NCBI GenBank assembly: GCA_022616615.1 | Contig: JAKEER010000317.1 | Location: forward strand, 1-37,735 | Source of the DNA: Acidobacteriota bacterium | Lineage (GTDB): Bacteria; Acidobacteriota; Terriglobia; Versatilivoradales; Versatilivoraceae | Length of the DNA: 37,735 nucleotides | Reading direction: 5' to 3' | Shown here: positions 15,394 to 35,040 of the stretch, piece after piece | Layout of the letters: each line of letters opens with the position of its first letter | How positions within the stretch are numbered: the stretch's first letter is position 1 | The notes under the pieces: generated by a model | Told to the model about the DNA's origin: nothing | The model's input: only the letters and a program-made list of their open reading frames with translations | The model's database searches: none | Position numbers and translations under genes: made by a program

Positions 15394-16638
15394 ATGTCAA
15401 CCACACGAAGAAAGTTTCTTCAACAGACCGCCACATCTAGTGCCGCCGGACTTCTGGCTGGCCTTCCCAAAGGTTGGGTTGGCAGCGTTTACGCCAATGG
15501 CGGACCTGAGGTCTCTCAGGTCCGGTTCGGAATTATCGCCCTCACCGACTGTGCCTCGATCGTGATGGCTCATGAGCTGGGGCTTTTCAAGAAGTACGGA
15601 ATTCAATCTGTCATCGCCAAGGAAGCCTCCTGGGCCGTGATTCGCGACAAGCTCAGCCTGGGCGAAAACCAGGCGACGCACATGCTGTTCGGCATGCCTT
15701 TCGCCTCAACCATGGGACTGGCCGGTTCACCCGTGAAACCGATGGTCATTCCTTGGCTGCTCAATCGCAACGGGCAGGCGATTACGCTTACCAATAAACT
15801 GAAACCGGCAAGGACGGCGGGGCAAGTGAAGCCGATGGTCGAACAAGCGAAAGCGTCTGGCAAGCCGATGACGTTTGCGATGACTTTTCCGCCGGGCACT
15901 CATGCCATGTGGCTGCGCTACTGGCTGGCCTCGGGTGGCATTCATCCCGACAAAGACATCAGTCTAATCACGATCCCTCCTCCACAGATGGTGGCCAACA
16001 TGAAAGTGGGTAAGATGGACGGCTTTTGCGTCGGAGAGCCCTGGAACCAGCGCGCCATCACGGATGGCATCGGTTACACCGCGGTTACCACGCAGCAGAT
16101 CTGGCGCGATCATCCGGAAAAAGTCTGTGCCTTTACGGAAGAGTTTGCACTTCGGAATCCGCGCACTGTGAAAGCCATCCTCAAGGCATTGCATGAATCC
16201 AGCGTGTGGATCGACAAGCTGGAGAACCGTCCGCATGTCGCTGAAGTAGTCTCACAAGCCAGTTACATCAATTGTCCCAAGGAAGTCATTCTGTCTCGGT
16301 TGCAGGGCAAATATGACTACGGCGACGGCAGAAGCGAGCAGGATCCTTGGTACATGACGTTTTCGTCGCGCGAATGCAATGCGCCACGCAGGTCTTTCGG
16401 ACTTTGGTGGTTGAGCCAGTTTCGCCGATGGGGCATGGTGAAAGGGACTCCCGACTATCAAGGCATTGTCAAAAAAGTCCTCCGCACGGATCTCTATCTG
16501 GAGGCGATGAAAGAGATCGGAGTCACTTCTAAAGGGCAAGACATGCAAAAGGAGAAGTTTTTTGATGGCGTGGTTTTTGATCCCGCCGACCCCGAGAAGT
16601 ATGCACGGAGTTTTGCCGTGAATAGCCTAGCGCAGTGA
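15394..16638 (+). CDS. nrtA: nitrate ABC transporter substrate-binding protein NrtA
   Basis: This is a periplasmic binding protein of the NrtA/SsuA/TauA class, 414 residues, starting after GGGAG. It carries a twin-arginine signal (STTRRKFLQQTATSSAAGLLAGL), so it is exported folded and possibly membrane-tethered. Family segments are VRFGIIALTDCASIVMAHELGLFKKYGI, ASWAVIRDKL, GENQATHMLFGMPFA, TFPPGTHAMWLRYWLASGGI, MKVGKMDGFCVGEPWN and FTEEFALRNPRTVKAILKAL. These match nitrate/nitrite NrtA rather than sulfonate proteins, notably the ADGFCVGEPWN-like stretch. It is followed by permease and ATPase genes and by nitrate and nitrite reductases, which settles nitrate as substrate. The porin relic and a palindromic repeat lie upstream. 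Confidence 0.93.
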   Translation: MSTTRRKFLQQTATSSAAGLLAGLPKGWVGSVYANGGPEVSQVRFGIIALTDCASIVMAHELGLFKKYGIQSVIAKEASWAVIRDKLSLGENQATHMLFGMPFASTMGLAGSPVKPMVIPWLLNRNGQAITLTNKLKPARTAGQVKPMVEQAKASGKPMTFAMTFPPGTHAMWLRYWLASGGIHPDKDISLITIPPPQMVANMKVGKMDGFCVGEPWNQRAITDGIGYTAVTTQQIWRDHPEKVCAFTEEFALRNPRTVKAILKALHESSVWIDKLENRPHVAEVVSQASYINCPKEVILSRLQGKYDYGDGRSEQDPWYMTFSSRECNAPRRSFGLWWLSQFRRWGMVKGTPDYQGIVKKVLRTDLYLEAMKEIGVTSKGQDMQKEKFFDGVVFDPADPEKYARSFAVNSLAQ

Positions 16639-17057: not shown

Positions 17058-17828
17058 ATGTCGACACAGCGCATCATCAATTTCTTTCTACCCTGCTTGG
17101 GGCTCCTGATGGTGGGTGTCCTCTGGTGGTTGGCCAGCGTTTATGTCTCCAAGGACTTGCCTTCACCCTGGAAGTCTTGGGAAGAAAGCAAATTGTATGT
17201 TTTGAAGCCTTTTGAAAAGAGGGGGGAAACTGACCAGGGAATTGGCTTGTTGGCGCTTTACAGTCTGGAGAGAGTTGCGAAAGGGTTCATGCTCGGGATC
17301 GGGTTGGCGACGCCCCTCGGGTTTCTCATTGGTCTCTCGAAGAGTTTTCATCGCATGCTGGATCCGGTGATTCAGATCCTGCGCCCGATCTCTCCGCTTG
17401 CCTGGCTGCCGCTCGGCCTGGTGCTCTTTCAAAGCTCGGAACCGGCCGCGTTGTTTGCCATTGCCCTCTGTTCCATGTGGCCAACCGTGCTGAACACGAT
17501 GGCTGGAGTGCGCTCCATTCCTCAGGACTACTGGAACGTGGCCAAGGTCTTGAGGCTTTCGAAAGCAAAAACCTTCATCAAGATTCTTCTGCCAGCCACG
17601 TTGCCGCACATCTTTACGGGCTATCGGTTAAGTCTCGGAATTGCCTGGCTGGTGATCGTCGCCAGCGAAATGCTGACGGGCACACCGGGTATCGGTGGCT
17701 TTCTCTGGCAGGAATACAACAGCTTGATCTATGCGCATATCTTGCTTTGCATCCTTGCTATCGGCGTGGTGGGTTTTGTGCTCGATCGGATGATGGGTTT
17801 TGTGGAAGCACGGTTGAGATCGGTTTAG
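17058..17828 (+). CDS. nrtB: nitrate ABC transporter permease NrtB
   Basis: This is an inner-membrane permease of 256 residues. It starts after AGGAGG (9 nt spacing). It has six predicted membrane segments, the first at FFLPCLGLLMVGVLWWLASV. The coupling helix (EAA loop) that docks the ATPases is seen in WNVAKVLRLSKAKTFIKILLPATLPHIFTGYRLSLGIAW. PISPLAWLPLGLVLF is typical of NrtB/SsuC permeases. The NrtA gene lies upstream after a repeat-filled gap and two ATPase genes lie downstream. Assigned to nitrate by context. Confidence 0.93.
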   Translation: MSTQRIINFFLPCLGLLMVGVLWWLASVYVSKDLPSPWKSWEESKLYVLKPFEKRGETDQGIGLLALYSLERVAKGFMLGIGLATPLGFLIGLSKSFHRMLDPVIQILRPISPLAWLPLGLVLFQSSEPAALFAIALCSMWPTVLNTMAGVRSIPQDYWNVAKVLRLSKAKTFIKILLPATLPHIFTGYRLSLGIAWLVIVASEMLTGTPGIGGFLWQEYNSLIYAHILLCILAIGVVGFVLDRMMGFVEARLRSV

Positions 17829-17983: not shown

Positions 17984-18178
17984 CGACCCCCTCTCCCGTT
18001 TGTGGGGAGAGGGTGGCCGAAGGCAGGGTGAGGGGTCGGTGTACAGCGGAGACGCAACCTCGGCGGTATGAGGTCGCTCGCTAAAGCTTGTCATTCCCGC
18101 GAACGTGGGAATCCAGACGGTTGCGGCTGTCAACAGGGGACCTGGATTCCAGCTCGCGCTGCGCTTGGCCGGAATGAC
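17984..18178. repeat. two dispersed palindromic repeats between nrtB and the first ATPase gene
   Basis: The first (17984-18038) has CGACCCCCTCTCCC inverted against GGGTGAGGGGTCG. The second (18090-18178) has GTCATTCCCGCGAACGTGGG and CTGGATTCC, ending in CCGGAATGAC, the widespread CATTCCCGCG..CGGGAATG type. The 395-bp gap holds no other gene. The repeat falsely extends the frame of the next gene upstream to 18068. Confidence 0.75.
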
Positions 18179-18223
18179 GAAGACGACGAGGACGATTTCA
18201 TCGGAACAGCGACAGGAGTGAAC

Positions 18224-19087
18224 GTGGCTTTCATTGAACTGAGAAACGTCGCCAAGACTTTTCAGTCGGGAAAAGTTAGTCGTGCGGTTCTGGAGAACAT
18301 CAATCTATTTGTTGAGGAAGGAGAGTTTGTTTCGATCGTCGGCTACACCGGCTCTGGAAAGTCCACACTGCTCAGTATCGCAACTGGATTGCTGGCTCCT
18401 GACCGTGGCCACGTAAGACTAGCCGGTGATCCCGTCTCCAAGTTCTCCTCCGAGGCTTCCATTGTTTTTCAGAACTACTCACTTTTACCTTGGTTCTCGG
18501 CACTGGAAAATGTGCGTCTAGCAGTGGAAGGCACGTTTCCCGCCTGGTCGCGCCCGCGCCAGCAGGAACAAGCGGTGCGTTATCTGGAAATGGCCGGATT
18601 GGGCAAAGCGCTGCAGAAACGGCCCGGTCAGCTTTCGGGCGGCATGCGTCAGCGCGTCGCCATCGCAAGAGCTTTTGCCGTCGAGCCCGCCGTCCTGTTC
18701 TTAGACGAACCGTTTGGCGCACTGGACGCGCTCACGCGCGCCAACCTTCAGCAGGAACTAGCCCGGCTTTGTGGCGAAGCAGGAAGACCGGTGACCATCT
18801 TGATGATCACAAATAATGTGGACGAGGCCATTCTGCTTTCCAACCGGATTGTGCCATTGACTCGCGGGCCACGCGCCACACTGGGCGCTCCAGTGGAAGT
18901 GCCGCTTAAGAGGCCAAGGAGCGCCGCGCAGCTACTGCACGACGAAGCAGCCGTACGGATTCGTTCGCGTATCGTCGAGTGCCTGACCGGAGTCGTCACA
19001 ACGACTTCAGAGGCGAAAATGGCGGCTCCCGAACTGAGTCAATCATACGCGACCGTTACTTCCGTTGTCACAGAAGGTGAATCATGA
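18224..19087 (+). CDS. nitrate ABC transporter ATPase (first of pair, altered H-loop)
   Basis: This is a cytoplasmic ATPase of about 287 residues powering the Nrt permease. The start is taken at GTG 18224 (then AFIELRNVAK) because AGGAG lies 5 nt upstream and the longer frame from 18068 is repeat sequence. Walker A is GYTGSGKST, the signature LSGGMRQRVAIARAF and Walker B VLFLDEPFGALD. The H-loop, normally THDVDEA, reads TNNVDEAI, so the switch histidine is Asn. A C-terminal extension follows (PRATLGAPVEVPLKRPRSAA). The stop overlaps the next ATPase start (ATGA), so the two are co-translated and probably pair as a heterodimer. Confidence 0.92.
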   Translation: MAFIELRNVAKTFQSGKVSRAVLENINLFVEEGEFVSIVGYTGSGKSTLLSIATGLLAPDRGHVRLAGDPVSKFSSEASIVFQNYSLLPWFSALENVRLAVEGTFPAWSRPRQQEQAVRYLEMAGLGKALQKRPGQLSGGMRQRVAIARAFAVEPAVLFLDEPFGALDALTRANLQQELARLCGEAGRPVTILMITNNVDEAILLSNRIVPLTRGPRATLGAPVEVPLKRPRSAAQLLHDEAAVRIRSRIVECLTGVVTTTSEAKMAAPELSQSYATVTSVVTEGES

Positions 19088-19881
19088 TTCATCCATTAGA
19101 AATCAGCGCGCTGAGTAAGAACTTCGAGACAAGCTCCGGCATCTATCCGGCAGTGAAAGATTTCAACGTCAGCATCGAGAATGGTGAGTTCGTATCCATC
19201 GTCGGGCACTCTGGCTGCGGCAAGTCAACCGTCTTATCCATCGTTGCCGGATTACAGAAAGCAACGCTGGGTGGCGTATGCATCGACGGTAGGGAAGTGC
19301 GGGAGCCCGGAAGGGACCGCGGCGTTGTGTTCCAATCGCCTTCCTTGCTCCCTTGGCTGAGTGCTTTGGAGAATGTGGCTTTGGCTGCAGGCCAGGCATT
19401 CCCAAGTCTTTCCACCAACCGGCAGAAGGAACACGCGCACCAATATCTGGCGCTGGTGGGAGTAGACGAATTCTGGAACCAGAAACCCGGTGAACTGTCT
19501 CTAGGTACCCAGCAACGTGTTGCCATCGCCAGGGCCCTGGTTCTGGAGCCTCGGTTTCTGTTGTTGGATGAGCCTTTCGGCATGCTCGATTCGCTCACCC
19601 GTTTCGAGTTGCAGGATGTCTTGCTGCAGGTGTGGGAAAAGAACCGCAAGATCGTGGTCATGGTCACGCATGACGTTGACGAGGCGCTTTATCTCTCGGA
19701 TCGAATCCTGCTAATGACGGACGGCCCTGAGGCGACCCTGGGGGAAGTGTTGAAGGTCCCGTTTGCCAGGCCGCGCCAGAGAAATGCGGTATTGGAGCAT
19801 CCGACCTACTACCGCTGCCGCAGCCAGGTGATTGATTTTCTGGAGCATCACGCGCACCAAGCCGGACAGCGGGTAGCATGA
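19084..19881 (+). CDS. nrtD: nitrate ABC transporter ATPase NrtD-like (second of pair, altered signature)
   Basis: This is the cytoplasmic ATPase partner, 265 residues. Walker A is GHSGCGKST, Walker B FLLLDEPFGMLD, and the H-loop VTHDVDEAL is intact. The ABC signature reads LSLGTQQRVAIARAL instead of LSGGQ/M. The C-terminal PEATLGEVLKVPFARPRQRNAVLEHPTYYRCRSQVIDFLE is typical of nitrate/sulfonate ATPases. It overlaps the previous gene by 4 nt. Because a composite ATP site takes its signature from the partner, the odd signature here faces the odd H-loop of the other subunit. Confidence 0.93.
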   Translation: MIHPLEISALSKNFETSSGIYPAVKDFNVSIENGEFVSIVGHSGCGKSTVLSIVAGLQKATLGGVCIDGREVREPGRDRGVVFQSPSLLPWLSALENVALAAGQAFPSLSTNRQKEHAHQYLALVGVDEFWNQKPGELSLGTQQRVAIARALVLEPRFLLLDEPFGMLDSLTRFELQDVLLQVWEKNRKIVVMVTHDVDEALYLSDRILLMTDGPEATLGEVLKVPFARPRQRNAVLEHPTYYRCRSQVIDFLEHHAHQAGQRVA

Positions 19882-20097: not shown

Positions 20098-21360
20098 ATG
20101 GCCCTGGGATTCGAGGAGCGATTTCCCATGGTCCGAGAGAGCGACCGATCGACATCAGCAGATGCGCGACGGTCTCTCAAATCCGTGCATATCCGGAAGG
20201 ATCTAATGCGGCAATTTCTTAAATCGCTCGATCCAATCGGAACTATCGCCGGGAGTGTAGCGATGCTGATTTTCTCGGTCGGCATTCTGGCCGGCTCACG
20301 GAGTCTGCGTGACTACGACCCGGCGTTGCTCACTTACACATTTGGCACTCTCTTCGCAGCCTTTGCGGTCGCTTACCGCTATGCCGTCTGGCTTCAGCGG
20401 CCCGCCACTAAGGTGTACTGGCGACGCGGCTGGAGCCTGATGTTCCAGCGCGGCAAAGTGCTGCGGAACCTGGCATTGCTAGCGCGCGGCGCCGGTTCGA
20501 ACTTGGTTGCCCAGGAGTTTATTCGGAAGCGGAGCCAGATCCGCTGGTTCGCCCATTTCTGTTTTGCCTGGGGATGCCTGCTGGCAGCCGCCGTGACGTT
20601 TCCCCTCGTCTTCGGCTGGGTTCATTTTGAAACCCATGTCGATGACCCTCTCATCTACCGGCTGTTCTTGTTTGGCACCGCGGTAGATGAGTTTCACGTC
20701 GCCTCGATCAAGCGTTATGTGATGTTCAACCTGTTGAATTTGTCGGCCGCCATGGTCATCGTAGGCGTGTCTCTGGCGCTGCGACGGCGGCTCAAGGAGG
20801 CGGGCCCGATTGCGCGGCAGCAATTTGGCAACGATCTGGTGCCATTACTCCTCCTGCTGGCGATCGCGGTAACAGGCCTGATGCTGACCTTTAGCATGCA
20901 CGTTTTGCACGGCTATGGTTACAGCGCCATCTCACTAATCCATGCACTGACCGTTGTGGCGACTTTGCTCTACCTGCCCTTTGGGAAGTTCTTCCATATC
21001 TTTCAACGTCCCGCCCAACTCAGCGTCGCCATTTACAAGAAGGCTAATGAGGAGATGCCAGCGGCGATATGCCGCGTTTGCAAGGAAGGCTTTGCTGGTG
21101 CGATGCACGTGGAGGATCTCATAGGAGTGTTGGCAGACGTGGGTTTGGACTGGCAGATGGAAACTGGTCACTATTCTGAGATTTGCCCGCGCTGCCGGCG
21201 GAGACTCATTGGGTTCTCGCAAGGGCGTTTAGTCGCAAGAAGCCGGGCCGCCAGATTGGTAGAAATGGCGAGAAGCGAAAAGGTAGCATCGGAGCCAGAT
21301 CGCCCGGTTGAGCTGGATATGACGTCGTTTGTGGCTTACACCGCGATGACGGAGAACTGA
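20098..21360 (+). CDS. NarI/DsrM-like membrane protein with C-terminal CxxC/CxxC domain, nitrate reductase electron input
   Basis: This is an inner-membrane protein of up to 420 residues, with about five transmembrane helices. Starts at 20098, 20128 (AGGAG upstream) or 20206 (GAAGGA upstream) are all possible; helices begin near residue 48 of the longest form. Histidines in or at the helices (H153 in [12 protein letters not shown]268, H271, H282 and H300 in [26 protein letters not shown]) could bind b haems. The layout, and the [10 protein letters not shown] segment, recall the quinol-oxidising NarI/DsrM/HdrE group. The cytoplasmic tail carries Cys325-x2-Cys328 and Cys363-x2-Cys366, a zinc-ribbon-like set. 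It ends 4 nt before the nitrate reductase gene. I infer that it passes quinol electrons to that enzyme. Family call is moderate. Confidence 0.75.
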
Positions 21361-21364
21361 GAGA

Positions 21365-23530
21365 ATGGCACAGCTTCCACAAACGATCTCTGAACTGATC
21401 GACCTGCACGGTCCGCATCTAAATGACTTGCCACCGGGAGGCTGGACTTCCGGGGAGGAGCCCGACCGTTTGGTGAAGACCCACTGCTGCTTCTGCGGTG
21501 TGCAGTGTGGCATTCAGCTCAAGGTCAAAGACAACCAAGTCGTCGGCTTTGAGCCGTGGGAAGACTTTCCAGTCAATCACGGAATGCTGTGCCCAAAGGG
21601 CGTGACGCGTTATTTGCAGGGAAGCCATCCGGATCGCCTGCTGTCACCAATGGTGCGCACTGCCAACGGCTTTCGCGAGACGAGCTGGGCGGAGGCGATT
21701 GATCGTGTTGTCGAGAACATCCAACGCATTCAAAGCAAGCACGGCAAAGACGCCTTGGCGGTGCTGTCAGGCGCGTCGCTCACGAATGAGAAGGCCTACC
21801 TGATGGGAAAGTTTGCCCGCGTCGCCCTGGGGACGCGTCACATTGACTACAACGGCCGTCTCTGCATGGTCGCTGCCGGAGCTGCGAACAAGATGGCTTT
21901 TGGCATCGATCGGGGAGCCAATCCCTGGAGCGATATTCCTTTGGCCAAGTGTCTGATCTTGACCGGGACGAATGTGGGTGAGTGTTTTCCGATTCTGACC
22001 GACTACATCTGGAAGGCTCGGGACAACGGCGCGCGAATTATCGTGATCGACCCACGGATGACGCCCATCGCACGCACCGCCGACCTTTTTGTGCCGATTC
22101 GACCAGGGCGCGACAGCGCGCTGATGAATGGGCTGCTGCATGTATGCATTGAACGCGGTTGGGTGGACGCAGAGTTCGTCGAGCAGCACACCTGCGGATT
22201 TGAGGCTGTCAGTCAAACGGTGGCAGCTTACACGCCGGCCCGGGTGGGCGAGATCTGTGGCATTCCGGCCCGGGCGGTGCTGCAGGCTGCCGAGTGGTGG
22301 GCGTCGGCCGACACTGGGATGTTGCTGCATGCCCGCGGCATTGAACACCACAGCAAGGGCACGGAGAACTGCCTTTCCTGTATCAACCTCGTTCTGGCTA
22401 CTGGAAAAATCGGAAAGCCGGGCTGTGGATACTCAACCCTTACGGGTCAGGGCAATGGCCAGGGCGGACGCGAGCATGGCCAGCGTTGCAACCAACTTCC
22501 AGGCGCTCGCGATATTGAGAATCCACAGGATCGACAAGTCGTCGCCGAACACTGGAAGATTGACGAATCCGAGTTGCCCCACACCGGCATAGCTTCGACG
22601 GAGATGATGGCGGCGATTCATCGCGGAGAGATTCGAGGCCTGCTATCGATCTGCTTCAATCCGCTGGTATCTCTTCCAGACGCCGAGCACACCCGCTCTG
22701 CCCTCGACAAGCTGGAGTTCTTTGGCGTCATCGATTTCTTCCTGTCAGAAACCGCACGTCATGCGGATGTCGTTCTGGCAGGTTCTTTGCACGAAGAAGA
22801 CGAAGGCACGGTGACGACTGCCGAGGGTCGGGTGGTACGCATCCAGCGCGCTGTCGAGCCACCTGGAAACGCCCGAGCCGACTGGGAGATTGTCTGCGAT
22901 CTGGCTCGCCGGTTTGTCCCGTTTGAGCAGTTCCCCTATGCAGGCGTAGAAGACATCTTCCGTGAGTTGTGTCATGTCTCCAGTGGAGCCGTTTGCGACT
23001 ATGCAGGCATGACGTACCACAAAATCGAGAGCAACTACGGCGTCTTCTGGCCATGCCCATCGCCGAACCATCCTGGAACGCCACGGTTGTATGAAGGCGG
23101 AAAGTTCTATCACTGGGATGGCCGGGCCCGCTTCAACGCGGTGGAGTATCGGCCTCCGGTCGAGGATACGGACGCCGAATATCCTGTCATTTTGACCACA
23201 GGCCGAGTGGTGTCGCAATTTCTGAGCGGCACGCAGACACGACGGATTGGGCCGCTCGTGAAGCAGTATCCGGAGCCCTTGGTGGAATTACATCCGGACT
23301 TGGCGAGCCGGCGCGGGATTGGAAGCGGAGACGCAGTTCGCGTTTGGAGCCGCCGCGGAGAGGTGATGTTGCGCTGCCAAGTGGTGAAAACCATTCGGCC
23401 TGACACGATCTTTATTCCGTATCACTGGGCAGATGAAAGGTCGGCAAACCGTTTGACGAACAACGCGCTCGATCCGATATCGAAGATTCCTGAGTTCAAG
23501 GTCTGTGCGGTGCAGATTGCGAAGGCGTAG
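21365..23530 (+). CDS. nasA: assimilatory-type nitrate reductase catalytic subunit (Mo-bisMGD, [4Fe-4S])
   Basis: This enzyme reduces nitrate to nitrite in the cytoplasm; no Tat or Sec signal is present. It has 721 residues. The N-terminal cluster motif is Cys41-x2-Cys44-x3-Cys48 and Cys76 in MLCPKG. The likely Mo ligand is Cys167 in [19 protein letters not shown]. Further molybdopterin segments are [73 protein letters not shown] and the C-terminal [34 protein letters not shown]. It resembles NarB/NasA and lacks the C-terminal [2Fe-2S] domain of some NasA. No NasC, FAD partner or ferredoxin reductase is nearby. Instead it is co-transcribed with the membrane protein and Fe-S genes around it. 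Confidence 0.93.
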
Positions 23531-23577
23531 CGAGGCCCCCATCACTTTGGCAAAGGGGAGCTGTGAAAAACTTCAAC

Positions 23578-23645
23578 GGTAGGGACGCGCTGCCGCGCGT
23601 CCGCAACCGGAAAAACGAGCGGACGCGGAGCACCGCGTCCCTACC
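23578..23645. repeat. 68-bp palindromic repeat GGTAGGGACGCG..CGCGTCCCTACC
   Basis: Outer arms GGTAGGGACGCG and CGCGTCCCTACC are perfect complements of 12 bp. Inner CGCGTCCG and CGGACGCG pair again around CAACCGGAAAAACGAG. It lies 48 nt after the nitrate reductase stop and before the small acidic ORF, and could fold in the operon mRNA. Confidence 0.85.
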
Positions 23646-23728
23646 GGATCAGATCCGTATGCCCCATGGAATTTTTCTCACCTCCCGTTTGTTAAGGTCA
23701 AAGACGCAAGCCGGAGAGGAAAACAGCC

Positions 23729-23836
23729 ATGGATGAAGATGACACCTTCTACGATGTGGAAGGGCCTGAAAGAGAAGACGAGGAAGAAGACGACGACTGG
23801 GGCGCGTGGACGCTCGACAACGAGACGTCGGTGTAG
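23729..23836 (+). CDS. 35-residue highly acidic small protein in the nitrate reductase operon
   Basis: This ORF is too short for standard gene calling. ATG 23729 encodes MDEDDTFYDVEGPEREDEEE, continuing DDDWGAWTLDNETSV, then TAG. Seventeen of 35 residues are Asp or Glu, with one basic residue. A purine-rich ribosome site (GGAGAGGAAAACAGCC) precedes it. It lies between the catalytic subunit and the Fe-S subunit on the same strand. The two Trp residues in DDWGAWTL look like a short binding motif. I do not recognise a family. It could be a docking or assembly peptide for the enzyme complex; that is inference. Confidence 0.6.
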   Translation: MDEDDTFYDVEGPEREDEEEDDDWGAWTLDNETSV

Positions 23837-23878
23837 GGTGCGCTGCTTTCCAAGCGCACCCAGATGGGTTGCAATTCA

Positions 23879-24451
23879 ATGATCAATCCACCAATGGAAT
23901 TCTTTATTGACCCTTCGCGCTGCATCGGCTGCCAGGCGTGCTACCACGCCTGCGCCGAATGCGAGACTCATCGCGGCATTTCCATGATTCATCTGGAATA
24001 TGTGGATCGGGCAGAGTCCCCACAGACAGTTCCGGTAGTGTGCATGCATTGCGAAGAGCCGGCCTGCGCCAAGGTTTGTCCCGCGGACGCAATCAAGAAG
24101 ACTGCTGATGGCGTTGTCCAGTCGGCACTCAAGCCTCGTTGCATCGGATGTTCGAACTGTGTCCTGGCCTGTCCATTCGGAGTACCGCGCTACCTGGTGG
24201 ATTTCGACCAGATGATGAAGTGCGACATGTGTTACGACCGGACTTCTGCAGGGAAAAAGCCGATGTGCGCAACCGTGTGCCCAAGTGGCGCACTGGCCTA
24301 CGGTCCCAGCGCCGAGATCGAGCGGCAAAGAAACACGGTTGCGAGCAACACGTTTGTTTTTGGTCCGCAAGTCGTTCGGACCAAAGTTCAGATGATGCTT
24401 CCGGCGGAAGAAAGCGAGTTGGAGCTGGATGTGGCCGCGTTCATGAAGTGA
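23879..24451 (+). CDS. ferredoxin-type subunit with four [4Fe-4S] clusters (NrfC/DmsB-like)
   Basis: This is a cytoplasmic electron-transfer subunit of about 190 residues; start taken at 23879 (MINPPMEFF), with 23864 or 23894 also possible. Sixteen cysteines form four clusters: [11 protein letters not shown] (15, 18, 21, 25), [13 protein letters not shown] (55, 58, 63, 67), [11 protein letters not shown] (88, 91, 94, 98), and CDMC with CATVC (115, 118, 130, 134). This is the arrangement of the B subunits of DMSO-reductase-family enzymes, which carry electrons between a membrane quinol oxidase and the Mo subunit. Assimilatory nitrate reductases do not normally have such a subunit. No signal peptide is present, which agrees with a cytoplasmic complex. 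Confidence 0.92.
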
Positions 24452-24772
24452 GGGTGGGAGCCGCTCTCCGAGCGGCGCCAGAGATTGGACATTTTTGCTC
24501 CCCTCCTCGGCTGAGGAGGGGCGGGCGCTGGCACGGGACGGCGGTCCCACGCCAGCGCCGGGGTGGTGCGAGCGGCCGCTGCAGAGGCCCCGAGTTGAAC
24601 GTTTCGAGTCAAGAGAGTGAATACTCGAAACGAAACGCCTAACGAATGGTTTCGGGGCATCCCTCAGACCACCCCCGTGCCGCTGCACGGCACCTCCCCT
24701 CCTGATCTCAGGAGGGGAGCCCGAAAAATATCCAATCTGACCAAGTCGCCGCTGGGACAGCGGCTCCCACCC
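24452..24772. repeat. 321-bp element with 14-bp perfect terminal inverted repeats
   Basis: GGGTGGGAGCCGCT (24452-24465) and its complement AGCGGCTCCCACCC (24759-24772) bound the element, which starts directly after the stop of the Fe-S gene. Inside are two hairpins built on CCCCTCCTCGGCTGAGGAGGGG (24498-24519) and CCCCTCCTGATCTCAGGAGGGG (24697-24718). No convincing ORF is inside. It looks like a non-autonomous MITE-like element. Confidence 0.7.
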
Positions 24773-24830
24773 TCGTTCTTGATCTTCAAGGAAGCCGGCC
24801 TTGGGGCCGGCGGCGCTACCAGGGATGAGA

Positions 24831-24908
24831 AGGTAGGGTGGGCTGTCCTCAGCCCGCCGTCGGAGTAAAGATACCGACAGTGGCGCGGTGAGCGCGCCGC
24901 GACCTACC
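24831..24908. repeat. GGTAGGGTGGGCTGTCCTCAG repeat, copy 1
   Basis: GGTAGGGTGGGCTGTCC begins the unit and GGTAGG recurs inverted as CCTACC at 24903-24908. Inside, CGGTGAGCGCGCCGCGA forms dyads. A shortened copy lies at 25659-25688. It ends 24 nt before the Rieske gene start. Confidence 0.6.
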
Positions 24909-24932
24909 TTTCAGTTTTGAAAGGACCTATCT

Positions 24933-25424
24933 ATGTCTGACTCGCCCGCCTGGAAAGAAGACTTCCCGATTGCCTGGACCGACGATCACTTTGTGACACG
25001 GCGTGAATTTACCAAGTCGCTGGTGCTCGTGTCTTGTGCGTCCTTTGTGGCGAATGCGAGTGTGGCAACGCTTGAAGCATTCCAGGAGGCGCCTAAGGTA
25101 GTTTTCCCGGCGGTGCGAGTGGCAACTGCTGGCGAGTTGCCCGTAGGTGGAAGTCGGGTCTTCCATTATCCGGGTCCGAACGAGGTTTGCCTGCTGGTCC
25201 GAATCGGCAGCGAGCGCTATGTTGCTTACAGCCAGAAGTGCACGCATCTGGGCTGTCCGGTGCACTATCAGGCTGAGGTGCGGAAGCTTTATTGTCCTTG
25301 CCATGAAGGTTTCTTCAACGTTGACGACGGGCGCGTTCTGGCAGGACCCCCGCCGAGACCGTTGGCTCAGATCCGGCTCGAGAAGAGAGGAGAGGAACTA
25401 TGGGCTATTGGGAAGACCGGGTAG
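24933..25424 (+). CDS. Tat-anchored bc1-type Rieske [2Fe-2S] protein
   Basis: This is a Rieske protein of 163 residues. It starts after GAAAGGACC. A twin-arginine motif (TRREFTKSL) before a hydrophobic segment (VLVSCASFVANASVATL) predicts an uncleaved N-terminal anchor with the cluster domain outside the cytoplasm, as in QcrA. The cluster motifs are Cys103-T-His105-L-G-Cys108 and Cys121-P-Cys123-His124. Cys108 and Cys123 would form the disulfide found in high-potential bc1-type Rieske proteins. No cytochrome b or c1 of a bc complex is nearby. It overlaps the next membrane gene. Its place in a cytoplasmic nitrate reductase cluster is unusual. Confidence 0.92.
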   Translation: MSDSPAWKEDFPIAWTDDHFVTRREFTKSLVLVSCASFVANASVATLEAFQEAPKVVFPAVRVATAGELPVGGSRVFHYPGPNEVCLLVRIGSERYVAYSQKCTHLGCPVHYQAEVRKLYCPCHEGFFNVDDGRVLAGPPPRPLAQIRLEKRGEELWAIGKTG

Positions 25425-25648
25425 GTAGGTCGACGCTTCAGGCTCATCGCTCGCAACAGATGGCGTTGATCTATACCGTGATGATTTGCGTCTTCATTAT
25501 CCTTTTTCTGCAGTTTCTCATGTTGACGGTCGCGCTGGAGAGTTACTTGGGAGGGCAGGGAGGAGTGATTCTGCCAACTGCAGTGACTTCGGGAATCTGC
25601 TGCGCGCTCGCGTGCAAGCTGATCGGGTACGTGCTCACGCAGCGATAA
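25400..25648 (+). CDS. small two-helix membrane protein co-translated with the Rieske protein
   Basis: This 82-residue protein starts at ATG 25400, inside the end of the Rieske gene (25-nt overlap, different frame), after GAGAGGAG. It has a short polar N-terminus (MGYWEDRVGRSTLQAHRSQQ) and two hydrophobic helices, at about residues 21-44 (MALIYTVMICVFIILFLQF) and 52-78. No cofactor motif is seen. The overlap suggests a fixed stoichiometry with the Rieske subunit, perhaps as its membrane partner. It may belong to a DUF family (DUF6755-like from memory), unverified. Confidence 0.8.
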   Translation: MGYWEDRVGRSTLQAHRSQQMALIYTVMICVFIILFLQFLMLTVALESYLGGQGGVILPTAVTSGICCALACKLIGYVLTQR

Positions 25649-25996: not shown

Positions 25997-28447
25997 ATGT
26001 CTGCCAAACAACGCTTGATCGTGATTGGGAACGGCATGGCCGGAGCGCGTCTTGTCGAAGACCTACTGGCCCGCGGAGGCGGCGACAAGTATGAAATCGT
26101 CATGTTCGGCGATGAGCCCTATGGCAACTACAATCGTATCCTGCTTTCTGGCGTCTTGTCTGGAACGCATGATCCAAAAGAAATCTTCATCAATCCACTG
26201 AGCTGGTATTTAGAGAAGGGAATTCGCCTGCATTCGGATGTGCGTGTGTCGGCGATCGACCGCGAACGCTGCCAGGTGCTGGGTGGCGACACAATTACAG
26301 AACCTTACGATCAGTTGGTGATTGCAACTGGGAGCCGGCCTTTCGTTCCGCCCATAGAGGGGCTCAGGTTGGACTCGGGCCGGTTCAAAGAGGGAGTTTT
26401 TCTGTTTCGTACGCTGCAAGACTGTGACGGCATCATCAAGTTTGCAGGCCGATGCCGGAAGGCTGTTGTCATTGGTGGCGGACTTCTGGGTCTGGAAGCG
26501 GCCCGAGGTTTGTTAAACCTTGGAGTAGAAACCCATGTCGTGCATCTCATGAGTCATCTCATGGAGGTACAACTCGATGGCCCCGCAGGAGCCGTACTGA
26601 AGAATACTTTGGAACATCTGGGAGTGCAGGTGCACCTTGAGAAACTAACAACTGCGATTCTCGGCAACGATGAAGTCAAAGGATTACAGTTCAAGGATGG
26701 AACGACGCTGGATTGCGACATGGTTGTCATTTCGGCAGGCATCCGTGCCAACAGCGAGCTCGCTCAAGCGGCCGGACTGAAGGTGGAACGCGGAATTGTA
26801 GTGAACGACTTTCTGAATTGTCCGGATGATCCGAAGATTTTTGCCGTGGGCGAGTGCGCCCAGCACCGGGGACAGGTCTACGGACTTGTGGCCCCGCTCT
26901 GGGAACAAACCGCAGTCTTGGCAGACCGATTGAGCGGGCGTAACCCTCAGGCGGTTTATTCCGGCTCGAAAGTTTCAACCAAGCTCAAGGTCATGGGCGT
27001 CGAGTTGGCCGTGATGGGCGACAAGCAACCGCGCGAGCGTGAAGATGAGGAAGTGAGTTACGTCGAACGGTCTCGCGGTATTTACAAGAAGCTCATCATC
27101 CGCAACGGCCAGTTAGCGGGGGCGATTCTGTTGGGAGATTCGTTGCGCGCTGCCTCGCTGCACCAATACTTCGATCAAGGCTCTGAACTGCCCGAGAATC
27201 GAGCTGAATTACTCTTCCCCATGACTGGCGAAGCCAAGCCGCTCACCATGGCGTATGTCCCGGATTCCGCGCAGATCTGCAATTGCAATGGCGTTTCGAA
27301 GGGAAGGCTGGTGCAGGCAATTCAATCCGGCTGCTGTCGCAGCCTAAAGTCTCTATGCGACGCGACGCGGGCCGGGACTGGCTGCGGTTCTTGCAAGCCG
27401 CAGGTCCAGGCGATTCTAGAGATGGCGTCGGACGGCCTGATGGTGGAAGATCCTTCGGCGCATTATTACGTCCCGGGAATCCCGTTGGCGAAGCCAGCAC
27501 TGATTCAAGCCATCAAAGAGCAAGGTTTGCGAAGTGTTTCCGCCGTTTTTGAAGCTTTGGCTGGAGGCAGGGAAGATGCTGGCAGCAAGGTCGGATTGGC
27601 TTCTCTGCTCAAGACCGTTTGGGGCAAGGATTATGACGACGAACGGGATGCGCGTTTTATTAATGATCGCGTTCATGCCAACGTTCAGAAAGACCGGACG
27701 TTTAGCGTTATTCCCAGGATCTACGGCGGCGTGACCAGCGCAGCGGAGCTGCGGCGTATTGCGGATGTTGCAGAGAAGTACAGCGTCCCGATGGTCAAGA
27801 TTACAGGTGGCCAGCGAATTGATCTCTTAGGCATCTCCAAGGAAAACCTTCCGAAGGTCTGGCAAGACCTTGGGATGCCGTCAGGACATGCGTACACCAA
27901 AGCGTTTCGAACGTGCAAAACGTGCGTCGGCACTGAGTTCTGTCGATATGGAGTTGGTGATAGCACGACATTGGGTATCCAGATCGAGAAACGCTTTCAG
28001 GGGATTGAGTCGCCCCACAAGATGAAACTTGCAGCAGCCGGCTGCCCGCGCAATTGTTCCGAGGCCACGACCAAGGATCTTGGTGCGGTGGCGATTGAGG
28101 GCGGTAGGTGGGAGATCTACATCGGTGGAGCGGCCGGATCGCGAGTTCGCAAAGGGGACATTCTTTGCGTTGTCGACACCCACCAAGAGGTGTTGAAGTT
28201 TATAGGCCGTTTCATGCAGTACTATCGGGAAAACGGCAAGTACCTGGAGCGGACCTACGACTTCGTGGAGCGCATCGGCATTGAGAGATTGCGCCGGCTT
28301 CTGGTGGATGACTCCGAGGGAATCTGTCCACGGCTGGATGAAGAAATCCAGGCGGCTGTTGATGCGTACGCGGATCCCTGGCAGGAGGCGGTCCATCAAG
28401 CGCATCCCACCCAGTTTCTGGACGCGCTGGCTCCCGTGAAGCATTAG
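25997..28447 (+). CDS. nirB: assimilatory NAD(P)H nitrite reductase large subunit NirB
   Basis: This cytoplasmic enzyme reduces nitrite to ammonium with six electrons from NAD(P)H. It has 816 residues. The N-terminal FAD site is IVIGNGMAGARLVEDL and the NAD site VVIGGGLLGLEAARGL. A BFD-like [2Fe-2S] domain uses Cys428, Cys430, Cys463 and Cys466 (CNCNG..GTGCGSC). The C-terminal sulfite/nitrite reductase domain binds siroheme and [4Fe-4S] through Cys643-x5-Cys649 and Cys683-x3-Cys687 (CPRNCSEA). The ribosome site GGGAG adjoins a palindromic repeat. The stop codon TAG lies inside a MITE-like repeat, yet the length is normal. NirD follows after that repeat. It takes nitrite from the nitrate reductase encoded upstream. 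Confidence 0.96.
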   Translation: MSAKQRLIVIGNGMAGARLVEDLLARGGGDKYEIVMFGDEPYGNYNRILLSGVLSGTHDPKEIFINPLSWYLEKGIRLHSDVRVSAIDRERCQVLGGDTITEPYDQLVIATGSRPFVPPIEGLRLDSGRFKEGVFLFRTLQDCDGIIKFAGRCRKAVVIGGGLLGLEAARGLLNLGVETHVVHLMSHLMEVQLDGPAGAVLKNTLEHLGVQVHLEKLTTAILGNDEVKGLQFKDGTTLDCDMVVISAGIRANSELAQAAGLKVERGIVVNDFLNCPDDPKIFAVGECAQHRGQVYGLVAPLWEQTAVLADRLSGRNPQAVYSGSKVSTKLKVMGVELAVMGDKQPREREDEEVSYVERSRGIYKKLIIRNGQLAGAILLGDSLRAASLHQYFDQGSELPENRAELLFPMTGEAKPLTMAYVPDSAQICNCNGVSKGRLVQAIQSGCCRSLKSLCDATRAGTGCGSCKPQVQAILEMASDGLMVEDPSAHYYVPGIPLAKPALIQAIKEQGLRSVSAVFEALAGGREDAGSKVGLASLLKTVWGKDYDDERDARFINDRVHANVQKDRTFSVIPRIYGGVTSAAELRRIADVAEKYSVPMVKITGGQRIDLLGISKENLPKVWQDLGMPSGHAYTKAFRTCKTCVGTEFCRYGVGDSTTLGIQIEKRFQGIESPHKMKLAAAGCPRNCSEATTKDLGAVAIEGGRWEIYIGGAAGSRVRKGDILCVVDTHQEVLKFIGRFMQYYRENGKYLERTYDFVERIGIERLRRLLVDDSEGICPRLDEEIQAAVDAYADPWQEAVHQAHPTQFLDALAPVKH

Positions 28448-28600: not shown

Positions 28601-28948
28601 TTGTCCTACAAAGCGAGCGAAAATGTGACCTATTCTCTCGGCCCGGCTTCCCAGATTCCTGTCGGCGAAGGGAAGGCTTTTCAGGTCGGAGAGCTGCAGG
28701 TAGCGGTTTTTCGCTCACGCGATGGGAGACTCTTCTCTACTCAAGCGTTCTGTCCACACAAGCATGGGCTGCTGGCTGATGGCATCATCGGCGCCGGCAG
28801 GGTGATTTGCCCGCTTCATTCCTATAAGTTTGATCTGGAAACGGGAAAGCCGGTCGGAAACGACTGCAAGGCTTTGCAGACGTACCGAGTAGAACTGTCT
28901 GAAAATGGCAACCTACAGCTCCATCTGGAAATCGTGGAAGGATATTAG
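28601..28948 (+). CDS. nirD: nitrite reductase small subunit NirD (Rieske-type)
   Basis: This is the small partner of NirB, 115 residues, cytoplasmic. The only sensible start is TTG 28601, 8 nt after GGAGGT. The Rieske-like fold carries a full [2Fe-2S] ligand set: Cys51-P-His53 and Cys70-P-L-His73 (CPHKHG, CPLHSYKF). Many NirD proteins have lost these, so this one probably carries a cluster. There is no disulfide pair, unlike the Rieske protein at 24933. It is separated from nirB by a hairpin-forming repeat that may lower its expression; the strong ribosome site may offset the weak start codon. Confidence 0.93.
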   Translation: MSYKASENVTYSLGPASQIPVGEGKAFQVGELQVAVFRSRDGRLFSTQAFCPHKHGLLADGIIGAGRVICPLHSYKFDLETGKPVGNDCKALQTYRVELSENGNLQLHLEIVEGY

Positions 28949-29026: not shown

Positions 29027-29659
29027 ATGGACGTCAGTGAGTGCTGCGGCATGAATAAAGCGATGTTGCCTGGATCGAAAGCGGCTCCAGCAGCCGTTGG
29101 CTTTCGAGTGAAATCAGGGTGGGCGGCTGCTGTATTGCTGTCGGGTCCGGCACTAGACCCAAGAGTCCTCGACTGCCGCTCTGTAGATCTTTCGGATCCT
29201 CACTTCCCAGAATCCAGGCAGCCTTACCATGCCCGGATGGGAACGTTGGAAGAGGATAGCTTGAAGATTAGCGAGCGGAGGAAAATCGTGCAGCGCGTCG
29301 CCAAACACTCGATAGCTGACCTGCTCAGGGAGTACGCAGCCGTTGGTTACCAGGTGCAGGGAGCAGCCCTCGTGGTTGGCAGTCAGATCGATCCAGCCTT
29401 GATCAAGAATCCGCACATCCGCGCTCACGCGCTGGAGGGACGGCTATTCAAAACAGTCCTAGAACAAGCACCCCATACCCACGATCTCTCGTGTCTGATC
29501 GTCACCGAACGCAACGCCTACCTGGAGGCCTCGGCCATTTTAGGGCGGCCGGAAGAGGATTTGCGGCGGGCCCTCTCGGCGCTTGGGCGTTCGTTGGGTG
29601 GGCCGTGGCGCGTTGATCAAAAGATGGCAGCGCTAGCGGCCTGGATGGCCTTGAGATGA
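29027..29659 (+). CDS. protein of unknown function, conserved-looking
   Basis: This ORF of up to 210 residues starts at 29027, or at 29051 (MNKAMLPG) if shorter. I do not recognise a family with certainty. It shows ordered blocks: AAVGFRVKSGWAAAVLLSG, then DLSDPHFPESRQPYHARMGT, a helical region (ISERRKIVQRVAKHSIADLLREYA), a strand-helix block QGAALVVGSQIDPALIKNPHIRAHALEGRLF, and LIVTERNAYLEASAILG. The pattern suggests a small alpha/beta protein, perhaps RNase-H-like, without a clear catalytic set. It follows nirD by 78 nt on the same strand and could be the last gene of the nitrate cluster. Confidence 0.65.
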   Translation: MDVSECCGMNKAMLPGSKAAPAAVGFRVKSGWAAAVLLSGPALDPRVLDCRSVDLSDPHFPESRQPYHARMGTLEEDSLKISERRKIVQRVAKHSIADLLREYAAVGYQVQGAALVVGSQIDPALIKNPHIRAHALEGRLFKTVLEQAPHTHDLSCLIVTERNAYLEASAILGRPEEDLRRALSALGRSLGGPWRVDQKMAALAAWMALR

Positions 29660-32646: not shown

Positions 32647-35040
32647 TCAGGGATCATCCTGCCGCCTGAAGTGCGCCAGCTCCCACGCCGGAAGGGCGAA
32701 AGCCTCAGACCGGTGCCTGTGGAACAGGAATAGAGCTGCCAAGAGATAAAGTCCGATCGCCAGGGTCAAGGCTTGATTGAATCCAAGGTTGACCGCAATC
32801 ACCATGGTCAGGATCGATCCGAGAACGGAAGCTGAGCCATTGATGCCCCATGCCCAGGGAATTAGTGGCGGCGATACTCGCTGCAGCCATTGAATGCCAA
32901 GCGGCATGGGCATTCCCATGACAAAGCCCAGGGGCGCAAGAAATGCGATAACCAGCAATGCTTTCAACGGAGTAGTGAGTCCTACAAAACGGTAGAGGAA
33001 GAACGGCAGGAGGGGAAGATAGGCCAATACTAGGGCTGCGACGAGTAGGCAGACAGCGGAGATGCTCCGCCGCAACCGGTCTTTTGGCAACCGACCTGAG
33101 AAGAGGCTTCCCAGTCCGCTGAAAAGCAATGTGGCGAAAAGGACGACACTCAGAGCGTAGACAGGACGCCCCAGGAACAGGATAAACTTTTGTACCAGAG
33201 TCATTTCGATAAGTATGAACCCCAGGCCAAGACAAACGAAGTATCCCAGTTCAGAGCTTCCCCGTCTTTCGCTGAGGGCTTTCTTCCGGAACCCGTAGAG
33301 CGGAACGAGAATGAAGAGAAGGACTAGAACCAAGGCAGCCAGAAAAACGAGAAACAGCACCAACAAGCCGACATTGGTCTTCTTGGATTCCCAGGACAGA
33401 AATAGGGAACTCCAAACCTGTCGGAGCCTGACCGTGTGAAAAAAGAACGGGCTGTTATCGCGCGGCGGTGACACATCATAAGGGTAGCTGTCATAGAAAG
33501 GTCGCGGGTTAGCTGCCGTAATCAACTTTGTGAAAGGGTTATCAGGCCGGGTGAGTGGCGTGTACAGCATCTCAAACGCGTTAGCTTGGCTGATGGCTTC
33601 GATTCTTTGCACTTCTTCGTCGGTAAAACCTGATTTCTTGAAGAGGAAATTGCACTCAACGGCCTCGCGCTGGCGGCTTTCGCGCACAATAATCATCGAA
33701 CGCTCCGGGCCCGACAGGCCGAGCTCTTGCATAGCCGCGCGCGTCAGAGAGACAAGCCGCAAGTCCTGCTGGGGCGGCTCGAGGTTCCAACGGGTAAAGG
33801 TGAGAATTCCGTCGTCCTTGAGCTTTGAGAAATAGTCCTTGAACGCCTCCACCGTATAGAGGTTGTTCTCGGTCAGCGCAAAAGCTCCCGCCGCCGTAGC
33901 GGCCCAGGTGTCGACCAGCGTCGCCTGGATGATGTCATAAGACTGGGCAGCACGGCGGATGAAGCTGCGTCCTTCGTCGACGTGGATCTGCACTTCCGGT
34001 CTAAAATACAAGCCCCCGGTAAAGTCCTTGAATTGCTCTCGCATCACGTCGTTGACAGTGATGGGGTTGACCTCCACTCCCGTGATTTCCCGGTTGCCGA
34101 ACGTGAGCGCCGTGAGAACGTCAATGCCACCGCCCGGTCCCACAATCAGGGTTTGGGCGGATGGCTTTATGTGGTAGGCCAGGGAAGACACACGGGCCTG
34201 CAGGAACCGCCACGATGCGATGTTCCCATCAAAGTCTGGCAACAGGGTGCCGGCATCGCCGTCCATGATGATCCAGGTATTCTTGCGGTCACGATTCACC
34301 TGAACGACCGTAATCCGCGAAGACGAATCCCACTTCGAAAAAAGTGCCTCGCCTTCATTCCGCCCTTTGACATACTGAATCTTAAGCCACGGATTGCCGG
34401 GGGAGAGGATAAGGAATGCGGTGATGGGCCCCACAAGGAACAGGGGAATCCAGAGCCAGCTTCTTGAGCCGCCTGAGGGCAAGAGAAGCCAGCAAACAGC
34501 CGCTGCCAAACTCGCGATGGAAAGCATGGCCTGCGGACCACCTAGTACGTTTAGCAGCGGAATCACGAGCAGACAGCCGCAGGCCGCGCCAGCGAGGTCG
34601 AAGGAATAAAGGCGGCTCACGTTTTCTGCCAGATGAGTCATGGCCAGGGAAAGGCACAAGCCGCCAAGAAAAAAAGGAACTGCCGGAATGCTGTAGAGCA
34701 GAAGGATCCGTCCAAGCTGGCGCAAGGTGAAGTCGAATTGAAAGTCCAGCCTGAGGATTAGGGCCAAAGTCAACGGAATGGATGCTGCAAAAAGCCAGCA
34801 GGCCAGGAAGAGTTGTCTTTCAAGCCGGTCTCGCCGGAAGAAATTTGGAAACAGATAGACGTAAACCCCGCTCGCGCCCGATCCCAAAAGGGCCAGTGAA
34901 ATGACCATAAAGGCATAATGGTAATAGAGCTTTACAGAGAAGATGCGGGTCAGAACCAGCTCCAGCATTAGGATGGACGCGCTGATCACGAAAACCGCGA
35001 AGCAGACCCGGCGGCCGGGAAGAGACTGAGGGAGATTCAT
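32647..35040 (-). CDS. polytopic membrane protein with spermidine-synthase-like domain
   Basis: This is a 797-residue protein with many membrane helices around a soluble Rossmann-type domain. The N-terminal block (residues about 12-215) has six or more helices (AVFVISASILMLELVLTRIFSVKLYYHYAF). The middle domain has TLIVGPGGGIDVLTALTFG (301-307 glycine loop) followed by ITGVEVNP, the SAM-like pocket of SpeE, then DEGRSFIRRAAQSYDIIQATLVDT. The C-terminal half returns to helices (GLGFILIEMTLVQKFILFLGRPVYALSVVLF). Such fusions are common in Acidobacteriota and Deltaproteobacteria and are not proven to make polyamines. The usual substrate Asp pair is not clearly conserved. It stands alone, divergent from the MFS gene. 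Confidence 0.87.
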   Translation of the reverse strand: MNLPQSLPGRRVCFAVFVISASILMLELVLTRIFSVKLYYHYAFMVISLALLGSGASGVYVYLFPNFFRRDRLERQLFLACWLFAASIPLTLALILRLDFQFDFTLRQLGRILLLYSIPAVPFFLGGLCLSLAMTHLAENVSRLYSFDLAGAACGCLLVIPLLNVLGGPQAMLSIASLAAAVCWLLLPSGGSRSWLWIPLFLVGPITAFLILSPGNPWLKIQYVKGRNEGEALFSKWDSSSRITVVQVNRDRKNTWIIMDGDAGTLLPDFDGNIASWRFLQARVSSLAYHIKPSAQTLIVGPGGGIDVLTALTFGNREITGVEVNPITVNDVMREQFKDFTGGLYFRPEVQIHVDEGRSFIRRAAQSYDIIQATLVDTWAATAAGAFALTENNLYTVEAFKDYFSKLKDDGILTFTRWNLEPPQQDLRLVSLTRAAMQELGLSGPERSMIIVRESRQREAVECNFLFKKSGFTDEEVQRIEAISQANAFEMLYTPLTRPDNPFTKLITAANPRPFYDSYPYDVSPPRDNSPFFFHTVRLRQVWSSLFLSWESKKTNVGLLVLFLVFLAALVLVLLFILVPLYGFRKKALSERRGSSELGYFVCLGLGFILIEMTLVQKFILFLGRPVYALSVVLFATLLFSGLGSLFSGRLPKDRLRRSISAVCLLVAALVLAYLPLLPFFLYRFVGLTTPLKALLVIAFLAPLGFVMGMPMPLGIQWLQRVSPPLIPWAWGINGSASVLGSILTMVIAVNLGFNQALTLAIGLYLLAALFLFHRHRSEAFALPAWELAHFRRQDDP

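What the first reader, a model, noticed from the sequence alone, without database searches (positions are those of the whole stretch)
20098..25648. Candidate membrane-linked, quinol-driven assimilatory nitrate reductase
Seen: a signal-less NasA/NarB-type catalytic subunit is encoded with a NarI/DsrM-like membrane protein, a 16-Cys four-cluster ferredoxin subunit, a Tat-anchored bc1-type Rieske protein and a two-helix membrane protein, between nitrate uptake genes and NirBD. Known: assimilatory nitrate reductases are fed by NAD(P)H-diaphorase subunits, ferredoxin or flavodoxin; B-type four-cluster subunits and membrane quinol oxidases belong to respiratory DMSO-reductase-family enzymes. Inferred: the cluster encodes a hybrid complex in which quinol, not NADH or soluble ferredoxin, pays for nitrate assimilation, perhaps with energy conservation. 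A topological puzzle remains: the Rieske cluster should lie outside while the Mo enzyme lies inside.
Basis: partly seen in the sequence, partly recalled or inferred. Interest (0 to 1): 0.85.

Follow-up and report, generated by a model that had tools for sequence, protein, structure and literature searches.

The report
Membrane-linked NasA-type nitrate reductase module
Five neighbouring genes, kept together in several hundred genomes from many bacterial phyla, appear to encode an undescribed membrane-attached nitrate reductase fed from the quinone pool, used here to make ammonium from nitrate and in most relatives probably for nitrate respiration.

Summary
At 20098-25648 five + strand genes encode a NarI/EtfD-fold cytochrome-b-like membrane protein (MemB), a cytoplasmic NasA-type Mo enzyme, a four-cluster ferredoxin, a Tat-anchored Rieske protein and a DUF6755 protein, between an ABC transporter and NirBD.

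They form a real unit. In 347 Acidobacteriota genomes, 47 carry both MemB and NasA, adjacent in all 47. DUF6755 occurs in 45 genomes, all among those 47. All five genes are complete in 86 of 103 loci examined; nearly all the rest are cut by contig ends. Hosts include Acidobacteriota, Planctomycetota, Myxococcota, Armatimonadota and Deinococcus plasmids.

Nitrate as substrate is supported by the Cys-Met active-site signature and by NarK-family transporters beside or fused to MemB. Own-genome searches found no narG, napA or Nas diaphorase.

Two corrections. First, 'assimilatory' fits only the window's small subclade, where NirBD is always adjacent; elsewhere the neighbours (NarK, RIC, NnrS, Rrf2, Crp/Fnr) point to dissimilatory use. 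Second, MemB has three invariant histidines, enough for one bis-His heme b, so energy conservation is not shown. The Rieske role is open; several hosts lack bc-type cytochrome b.

Quinol as donor is inferred, not shown. No description was found in the open-access library searched.

The parts
15394..16638 (+). ABC substrate-binding protein, NMT1-like (PF13379), likely nitrate
   Evidence: substrate inferred from context
17058..17828 (+). ABC permease (PF00528)
18068..19087 (+). ABC ATPase 1 (PF00005)
19084..19881 (+). ABC ATPase 2 (PF00005)
20206..21360 (+). MemB: 6-TM, NarI/EtfD-fold cytochrome-b-like subunit with cytoplasmic Cys4 domain; ORF opens at 20098 but homology starts near 20206. Invariant H153, H282, H300 and C325, C328, C363, C366 (numbering from 20098)
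21365..23530 (+). NasA: cytoplasmic Mo-bisMGD nitrate reductase catalytic subunit with N-terminal 4Fe-4S site and Cys-Met active-site signature (C167-M168)
23577..23646 (.). Strong hairpin (28-nt arms, 89% complementary, 14-nt loop) in the NasA-FdxB gap; role unknown
23864..24451 (+). FdxB: DmsB-type four-[4Fe-4S] ferredoxin subunit
24933..25424 (+). Rieske [2Fe-2S] protein, N-terminal Tat anchor; CTHLxC / CPCHxGxF motif
25400..25648 (+). DUF6755 small membrane protein, found only in module-bearing genomes in this phylum
25997..28447 (+). NirB, NADH-nitrite reductase large subunit (847 bits, cut-off 578)
28601..28948 (+). NirD-like small subunit (64.9 bits, cut-off 74.65)

Best explanation
The five genes encode one membrane-bound nitrate reductase complex. 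Proposed path: quinol is oxidised at MemB (NarI/EtfD-type, at least one heme b near the cytoplasmic face); electrons pass through the four clusters of FdxB docked on MemB's cytoplasmic side to the N-terminal 4Fe-4S and Mo-bisMGD of NasA, which reduces nitrate to nitrite in the cytoplasm. The Tat-exported Rieske protein, perhaps held by DUF6755, sits at the outer face of MemB and takes part in quinol chemistry there or exchanges electrons with a periplasmic partner. In the window the complex works between ABC uptake and NirBD, i.e. for assimilation; in most other hosts it sits with NarK transporters and nitrosative-stress genes and probably serves nitrate respiration. Shown: gene content, conserved linkage, nitrate-reductase signature, predicted MemB fold, NarK fusion, two genomic contexts. 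Inferred: complex formation, quinol as donor, electron path, cellular role. Open: what the Rieske does, and whether the reaction is electrogenic.
For: Linkage: 47/47 genomes with both MemB and NasA have them adjacent; all 45 DUF6755 genomes are among those 47, out of 347. 86 of 103 loci hold all five genes. Gene order can change while content stays: Armatimonadota have FdxB-Rieske-DUF6755-MFS-MemB-NasA. Substrate: CM signature in all 38 module NasAs, shared with NapA and NasC and unlike FDH CH; NarK-family MFS adjacent or fused to MemB, NarK being its best NCBIfam match in 7 of 8 tested (NarU in the eighth). MemB: model pLDDT 92; EtfD (prob 1.00) and NarI (0.90) among the top hits; positive-inside charge and the MFS fusion agree on N-in/C-in; H117/H264 cytoplasmic side, H246 outer side in trimmed numbering. 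EtfD precedent: bis-His heme b plus menaquinone linked to cytoplasmic Fe-S clusters (PMC13083937). No rival dedicated donor or nitrate reductase found in the genome. The Rieske does not depend on a bc complex: 5 of 9 module genomes, G175 and G264 being single contigs, have no PF13631 cytochrome b match. Dissimilatory context: NarK x2, NarJ-type PF02613, RIC, Rrf2, YwiC, HPP, MobA; in the closed genome G175 the other MopB proteins read as an FDH and a Tat-signal Phs-type protein.
Against: No biochemistry. MemB is matched by fold only (Foldseek E 0.009 at best; weak sequence hits). Only one bis-His heme is certain, so a membrane-crossing electron path is not established. No complex could be modelled here. 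Two exceptions: L080 has MemB-NasA but no FdxB, Rieske or DUF6755 within the stretch held; L204 has an MFS-MemB fusion without NasA. Standalone NasA next to NirB exists in related genomes (L159, L208), so the sister clade of the catalytic subunit does not need MemB. In the window the intergenic gaps are long.
Confidence: 0.72

Rival explanations
1. NasA is an ordinary soluble ferredoxin- or flavodoxin-dependent assimilatory enzyme; the MemB/FdxB/Rieske/DUF6755 genes are a separate electron-transfer unit that merely travels with it, for instance making reduced ferredoxin or detoxifying NO.
For: Standalone NasA next to NirBD exists in related genomes (L159, L208) and is the sister clade of module NasA. 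RIC and NnrS genes are frequent neighbours.
Against: Strict adjacency in 47/47 genomes and survival of gene content through reordering. FdxB is the B-subunit type that pairs with MopB catalytic subunits. Module NasAs form one clade apart from standalone ones (100/100).
Confidence: 0.13
2. The electrons enter elsewhere: the Rieske collects electrons from a periplasmic donor (cytochrome c, cupredoxin) and MemB carries them inward to NasA, so quinol is not the direct donor.
For: A P-side Rieske with Tat anchor is invariant; the nearest Rieske structures include arsenite oxidase AioB, whose Rieske passes electrons to periplasmic carriers (role from general knowledge); bc-type cytochrome b was not detected in several module genomes.
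Against: No cytochrome c or cupredoxin gene was among the recurrent neighbour clusters examined. The Rieske lacks the Ser and Tyr of high-potential bc1 Rieskes (CPCHxGxF), suggesting a lower potential. Moving electrons inward against the membrane potential from a carrier near +250 mV to nitrate would gain little (general knowledge).
Confidence: 0.12
3. The Mo enzyme is not a nitrate reductase but a formate dehydrogenase or another oxyanion enzyme.
For: It scores below the curated NasC cut-off and also matches Fdh-alpha.
Against: CM rather than the CH or CQ of formate dehydrogenases; grouped with NirB-linked NasA, apart from FDHs; NarK transporters, NarJ-type chaperone and NirBD neighbours.
Confidence: 0.03

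Closest known systems
Assimilatory nitrate reductases NasA/NasC/NarB
   Same: Catalytic subunit family, cytoplasmic, Cys-Met active site; NirBD and uptake neighbours in the window clade.
   Different: Known donors are NAD(P)H diaphorase subunits, ferredoxin or flavodoxin; here a B-type ferredoxin, a cytochrome-b-like subunit, a Rieske and DUF6755. Scores below the NasC cut-off; a distinct clade.
Respiratory NarGHI
   Same: Plan of catalytic + four-cluster + NarI-fold membrane subunit with cytoplasmic active site; NarK and NarJ-type neighbours in some hosts.
   Different: Catalytic subunit is NasA-type, not NarG; the B subunit is the short DmsB/Fdh type; one rather than two bis-His hemes certain; extra Rieske and DUF6755.
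Mycobacterial EtfD (and QmoC, DsrM, HdrE)
   Same: Membrane fold, best Foldseek hit; cytoplasmic Fe-S to heme b to menaquinone wire (PMC13083937).
   Different: EtfD reduces menaquinone with electrons from ETF and has HdrD-like clusters; MemB has a Cys4 C-terminal domain and a Mo partner.
Arsenite oxidase AioAB and cytochrome bc1/b6f Rieske proteins
   Same: Tat-anchored Rieske; MopB enzyme with a Rieske subunit in Aio.
   Different: In Aio both subunits are periplasmic; here the Mo enzyme is cytoplasmic. No bc-type cytochrome b in the cluster, and none detected in several module genomes.
Haloarchaeal nar operon with Rieske and cytochrome b genes
   Same: Recalled precedent, not tested: nitrate reductase encoded with a Rieske and a cytochrome b.
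   Different: There a NarG-type enzyme faces outside with a bc-type cytochrome b (recalled).

Membership tests
Assimilatory nitrate reductase (Nas/NarB) | NasA/NasC-family catalytic subunit, cytoplasmic, Cys-ligated Mo | tested here: met
   NF047855 824 bits (best family), no signal sequence, CM signature, sister to NirB-linked NasA
Assimilatory nitrate reductase (Nas/NarB) | Passes the curated NasC cut-off | tested here: not met
   824 < 1100; 0 of 347 genomes pass
Assimilatory nitrate reductase (Nas/NarB) | NADH diaphorase partner encoded | tested here: not met
   No NirB-like diaphorase other than NirB in the genome; ferredoxin-dependent Nas types need none
Assimilatory nitrate reductase (Nas/NarB) | Function is assimilation | tested here: inconclusive
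   NirBD and ABC uptake adjacent in the window clade only; dissimilatory-type context elsewhere
NarGHI respiratory nitrate reductase | NarG-type catalytic subunit | tested here: not met
   NarG model gives only trace hits in the genome; catalytic subunit is NasA-type
NarGHI respiratory nitrate reductase | NarI-like membrane subunit with two bis-His hemes | tested here: inconclusive
   NarI fold prob 0.90, but only three invariant His
NapAB periplasmic nitrate reductase | Tat-exported NapA | tested here: not met
   No signal on NasA; NapA score 294 vs cut-off 904
Cytochrome bc1/b6f complex | bc-type cytochrome b with the Rieske | tested here: not met
   MemB has no Pfam cytochrome b hit; several module genomes have no PF13631 match
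NarI/EtfD/QmoC membrane cytochrome b fold | Fold and bis-His heme site | tested here: met
   Foldseek EtfD prob 1.00, NarI 0.90; H117 and H264 invariant at the cytoplasmic side in 70 sequences; heme itself not shown
Quinol-dependent enzyme | Quinol oxidation activity | not testable with these tools
   Needs biochemistry

The most novel reading that the evidence does not exclude
The module is a further type of bacterial nitrate reductase beside Nar, Nap and soluble Nas: a membrane complex with a NasA-type cytoplasmic catalytic subunit that performs nitrate respiration in most hosts (hidden in annotations as assimilatory nasA plus unnamed genes), in which a NarI-like cytochrome b and a Rieske protein together oxidise menaquinol at the outer face, a bc-like reaction without a bc complex.
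Probability: 0.4. Interest if true: 0.9.

Novelty: new variant of a known kind. Interest (0 to 1): 0.78.

Why it matters
It would mean that nasA-like genes in abundant soil and freshwater bacteria, counted as nitrogen assimilation markers, often belong to a quinone-linked enzyme able to support nitrate respiration. A 2018 survey found that Granulicella mallensis and strain KBS 96 reduce nitrate although only nasA genes, no dissimilatory nitrate reductase, were identified (PMC5900883); this module is a testable explanation, though whether those strains carry it was not checked. It also gives DUF6755 a functional context and poses a defined bioenergetic question: what a Rieske protein does without a bc complex.

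Tried and rejected
Literature: 10 full-text searches for DUF6755, quinol-linked or membrane-bound assimilatory nitrate reductase, Rieske with NasA, and Deinococcus or Acidobacteria nitrate reductases found no description; subscription papers are not covered. MemB versus PDB sequences gave nothing useful. The MopB superfamily survey PMC10100899 lists NasC/NasA as cytoplasmic and assimilatory; its passages read did not mention this module. Tested and rejected: contig from an unrelated organism (an OYE-like gene on the window is 78% identical to the same-genus genome G001, although the assembly is 9.6 Mb with 8% contamination); the Rieske gene borrowed from a bc complex; the Mo enzyme being a formate dehydrogenase. 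Apparent absence of FdxB in the G175 group came from frame-overlap filtering and vanished with six-frame HMM search. Complex modelling was not possible: only single proteins can be predicted.
Full report
OBSERVATION. The five ORFs exist as described. Pfam and NCBIfam give NasA/NasC-type MopB, DmsB-type ferredoxin, Rieske, DUF6755 and NirB/NirD-like proteins, with an NMT1-like ABC transporter upstream. MemB has no Pfam family; NCBIfam gives only weak QmoC and TcuB matches.

CONSERVATION. Searching 151 relatives with MemB gave 13 strong hits; every locus long enough holds MemB-NasA-FdxB-Rieske, usually with DUF6755. With six-frame profile searches 86 of 103 loci have all five genes; of the other 17, the real exceptions are L080 and L204, the rest lie at contig ends. 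In 347 Acidobacteriota genomes MemB occurs in 49 and NasA (E below 1e-190) in 49, 47 shared, all 47 adjacent by coordinates. DUF6755 occurs in 45, all inside the 47 (in G197 it lies on another contig). In cultured Deinococcus the module lies on plasmids as a compact operon followed by a nitrate/nitrite transporter gene.

SUBSTRATE. Module NasAs form one clade (38 rows, 100/100) whose sister is standalone NasA (L159 and L190); long branches make the outer part of that tree unsure. All 38 have the Cys-Met signature of NapA, NasC and NasA; formate dehydrogenases have Cys-His or Cys-Gln. NarK-family transporters lie in the cluster or are fused N-terminal to MemB.

TWO CONTEXTS. The window falls in a six-row subclade (97/87) in which every member has NirB beside the module; among the 80 public loci NirB is adjacent only in L050-L053 and L055, the window's nearest relatives. 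Elsewhere recurrent neighbours are ScdA/RIC (16 loci), Crp/Fnr (8), NnrS (7), SLAC1 (7), a porin (7), Rrf2 (5) and radical SAM (5). In deeper Acidobacteriota the clusters include two NarK genes, a PF02613 chaperone, RIC, Rrf2, YwiC, an HPP protein and MobA, not all in one genome. In closed genome G175 the MopB search gave only the module, one FDH and one Tat-signal Phs-like protein (classed by reading motifs, not by profile). A respiratory role is therefore likely for most of the family; for the window assimilation remains the best reading. Standalone NasA with NirBD and an ABC protein in L208 shows that the same assimilation slot can be filled without MemB.

MEMBRANE SUBUNIT. The AF2 model (pLDDT 92, pTM 0.82) has six TM helices, an outer beta-hairpin and a cytoplasmic Cys4 domain. 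Foldseek: EtfD first (prob 1.00, E 0.009), NarI 0.90. Loop charges (9.6 K+R in loop 64-110; few on the other side) and the MFS fusion both place N- and C-termini inside. His117 and His264 (trimmed numbering; 153 and 300 in the ORF) are at the cytoplasmic side, His246 (282) at the outer side; the 18-residue spacing of the last two equals that of NarI His187/His205 (recalled), but the fourth NarI ligand is missing. So one heme b is likely and a second uncertain. EtfD has one heme (His78, His241) with menaquinone 4-5 A away (PMC13083937).

RIESKE. The twin-arginine motif is invariant in the 35-row alignment, and CTHLxC/CPCHxGxF in nearly all copies read. Positions that carry Ser and Tyr in bc1 Rieskes carry Gly and Phe, which by general knowledge lowers the potential. 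G175, G199, G229, G264 and G037 have the module but no detected bc-type cytochrome b, so the module Rieske does not need a bc complex.

ALTERNATIVE DONORS. In the window's genome the other MopB proteins classify as FdhF with NuoF, FdhN, Phs/Qrc-like, an unassigned MopB protein (L163) and NuoG; no NarG, NapA or second NasA, and no second NirB-type diaphorase. The assembly is 94% complete, so absence is not absolute.

JUDGEMENT. Real, conserved, undescribed in the library searched. The parts are known families; the combination is new. Quinol as donor is the most likely inference but untested.

Noticed in passing
L160:7102-11144 (G080:C36): Another unusual Nas arrangement: a NasA-like enzyme matching FDH, NasC and NapA models, next to a 620-aa protein with a DmsB-like four-cluster domain, NirB and an MFS transporter, in a genome that also has the five-gene module.
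   Followed up: partly
L204:9211-11835: MFS-MemB fusion gene with no NasA, ferredoxin or Rieske nearby (G301), on a 496-kb contig.
   Followed up: partly
L080:9968-13383: MemB-NasA without FdxB, Rieske or DUF6755 in the 7.6 kb held downstream.
   Followed up: partly
L187, L188, L189 (Deinococcus plasmids): Unfused MemB is annotated as 'MFS transporter', apparently an annotation spread from the MFS-MemB fusions of other genomes.
   Followed up: no
window 15231, 19965, 25860; 23577-23646; 24450-24774: Intergenic repeats (CCCCCTTAA-type) and long inverted repeats between module genes; probably dispersed repeat elements.
   Followed up: no
window whole; G000: The assembly is 9.6 Mb against 5.4 Mb for the same-genus genome, with 8% contamination; G001 carries an MFS-fused version of the module, unlike the window's.
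   Followed up: partly
window 29027-29659 and 32647-35040: A 210-aa protein after NirD without any Pfam or NCBIfam match, and a 797-aa protein with a spermidine-synthase-like domain.
   Followed up: no
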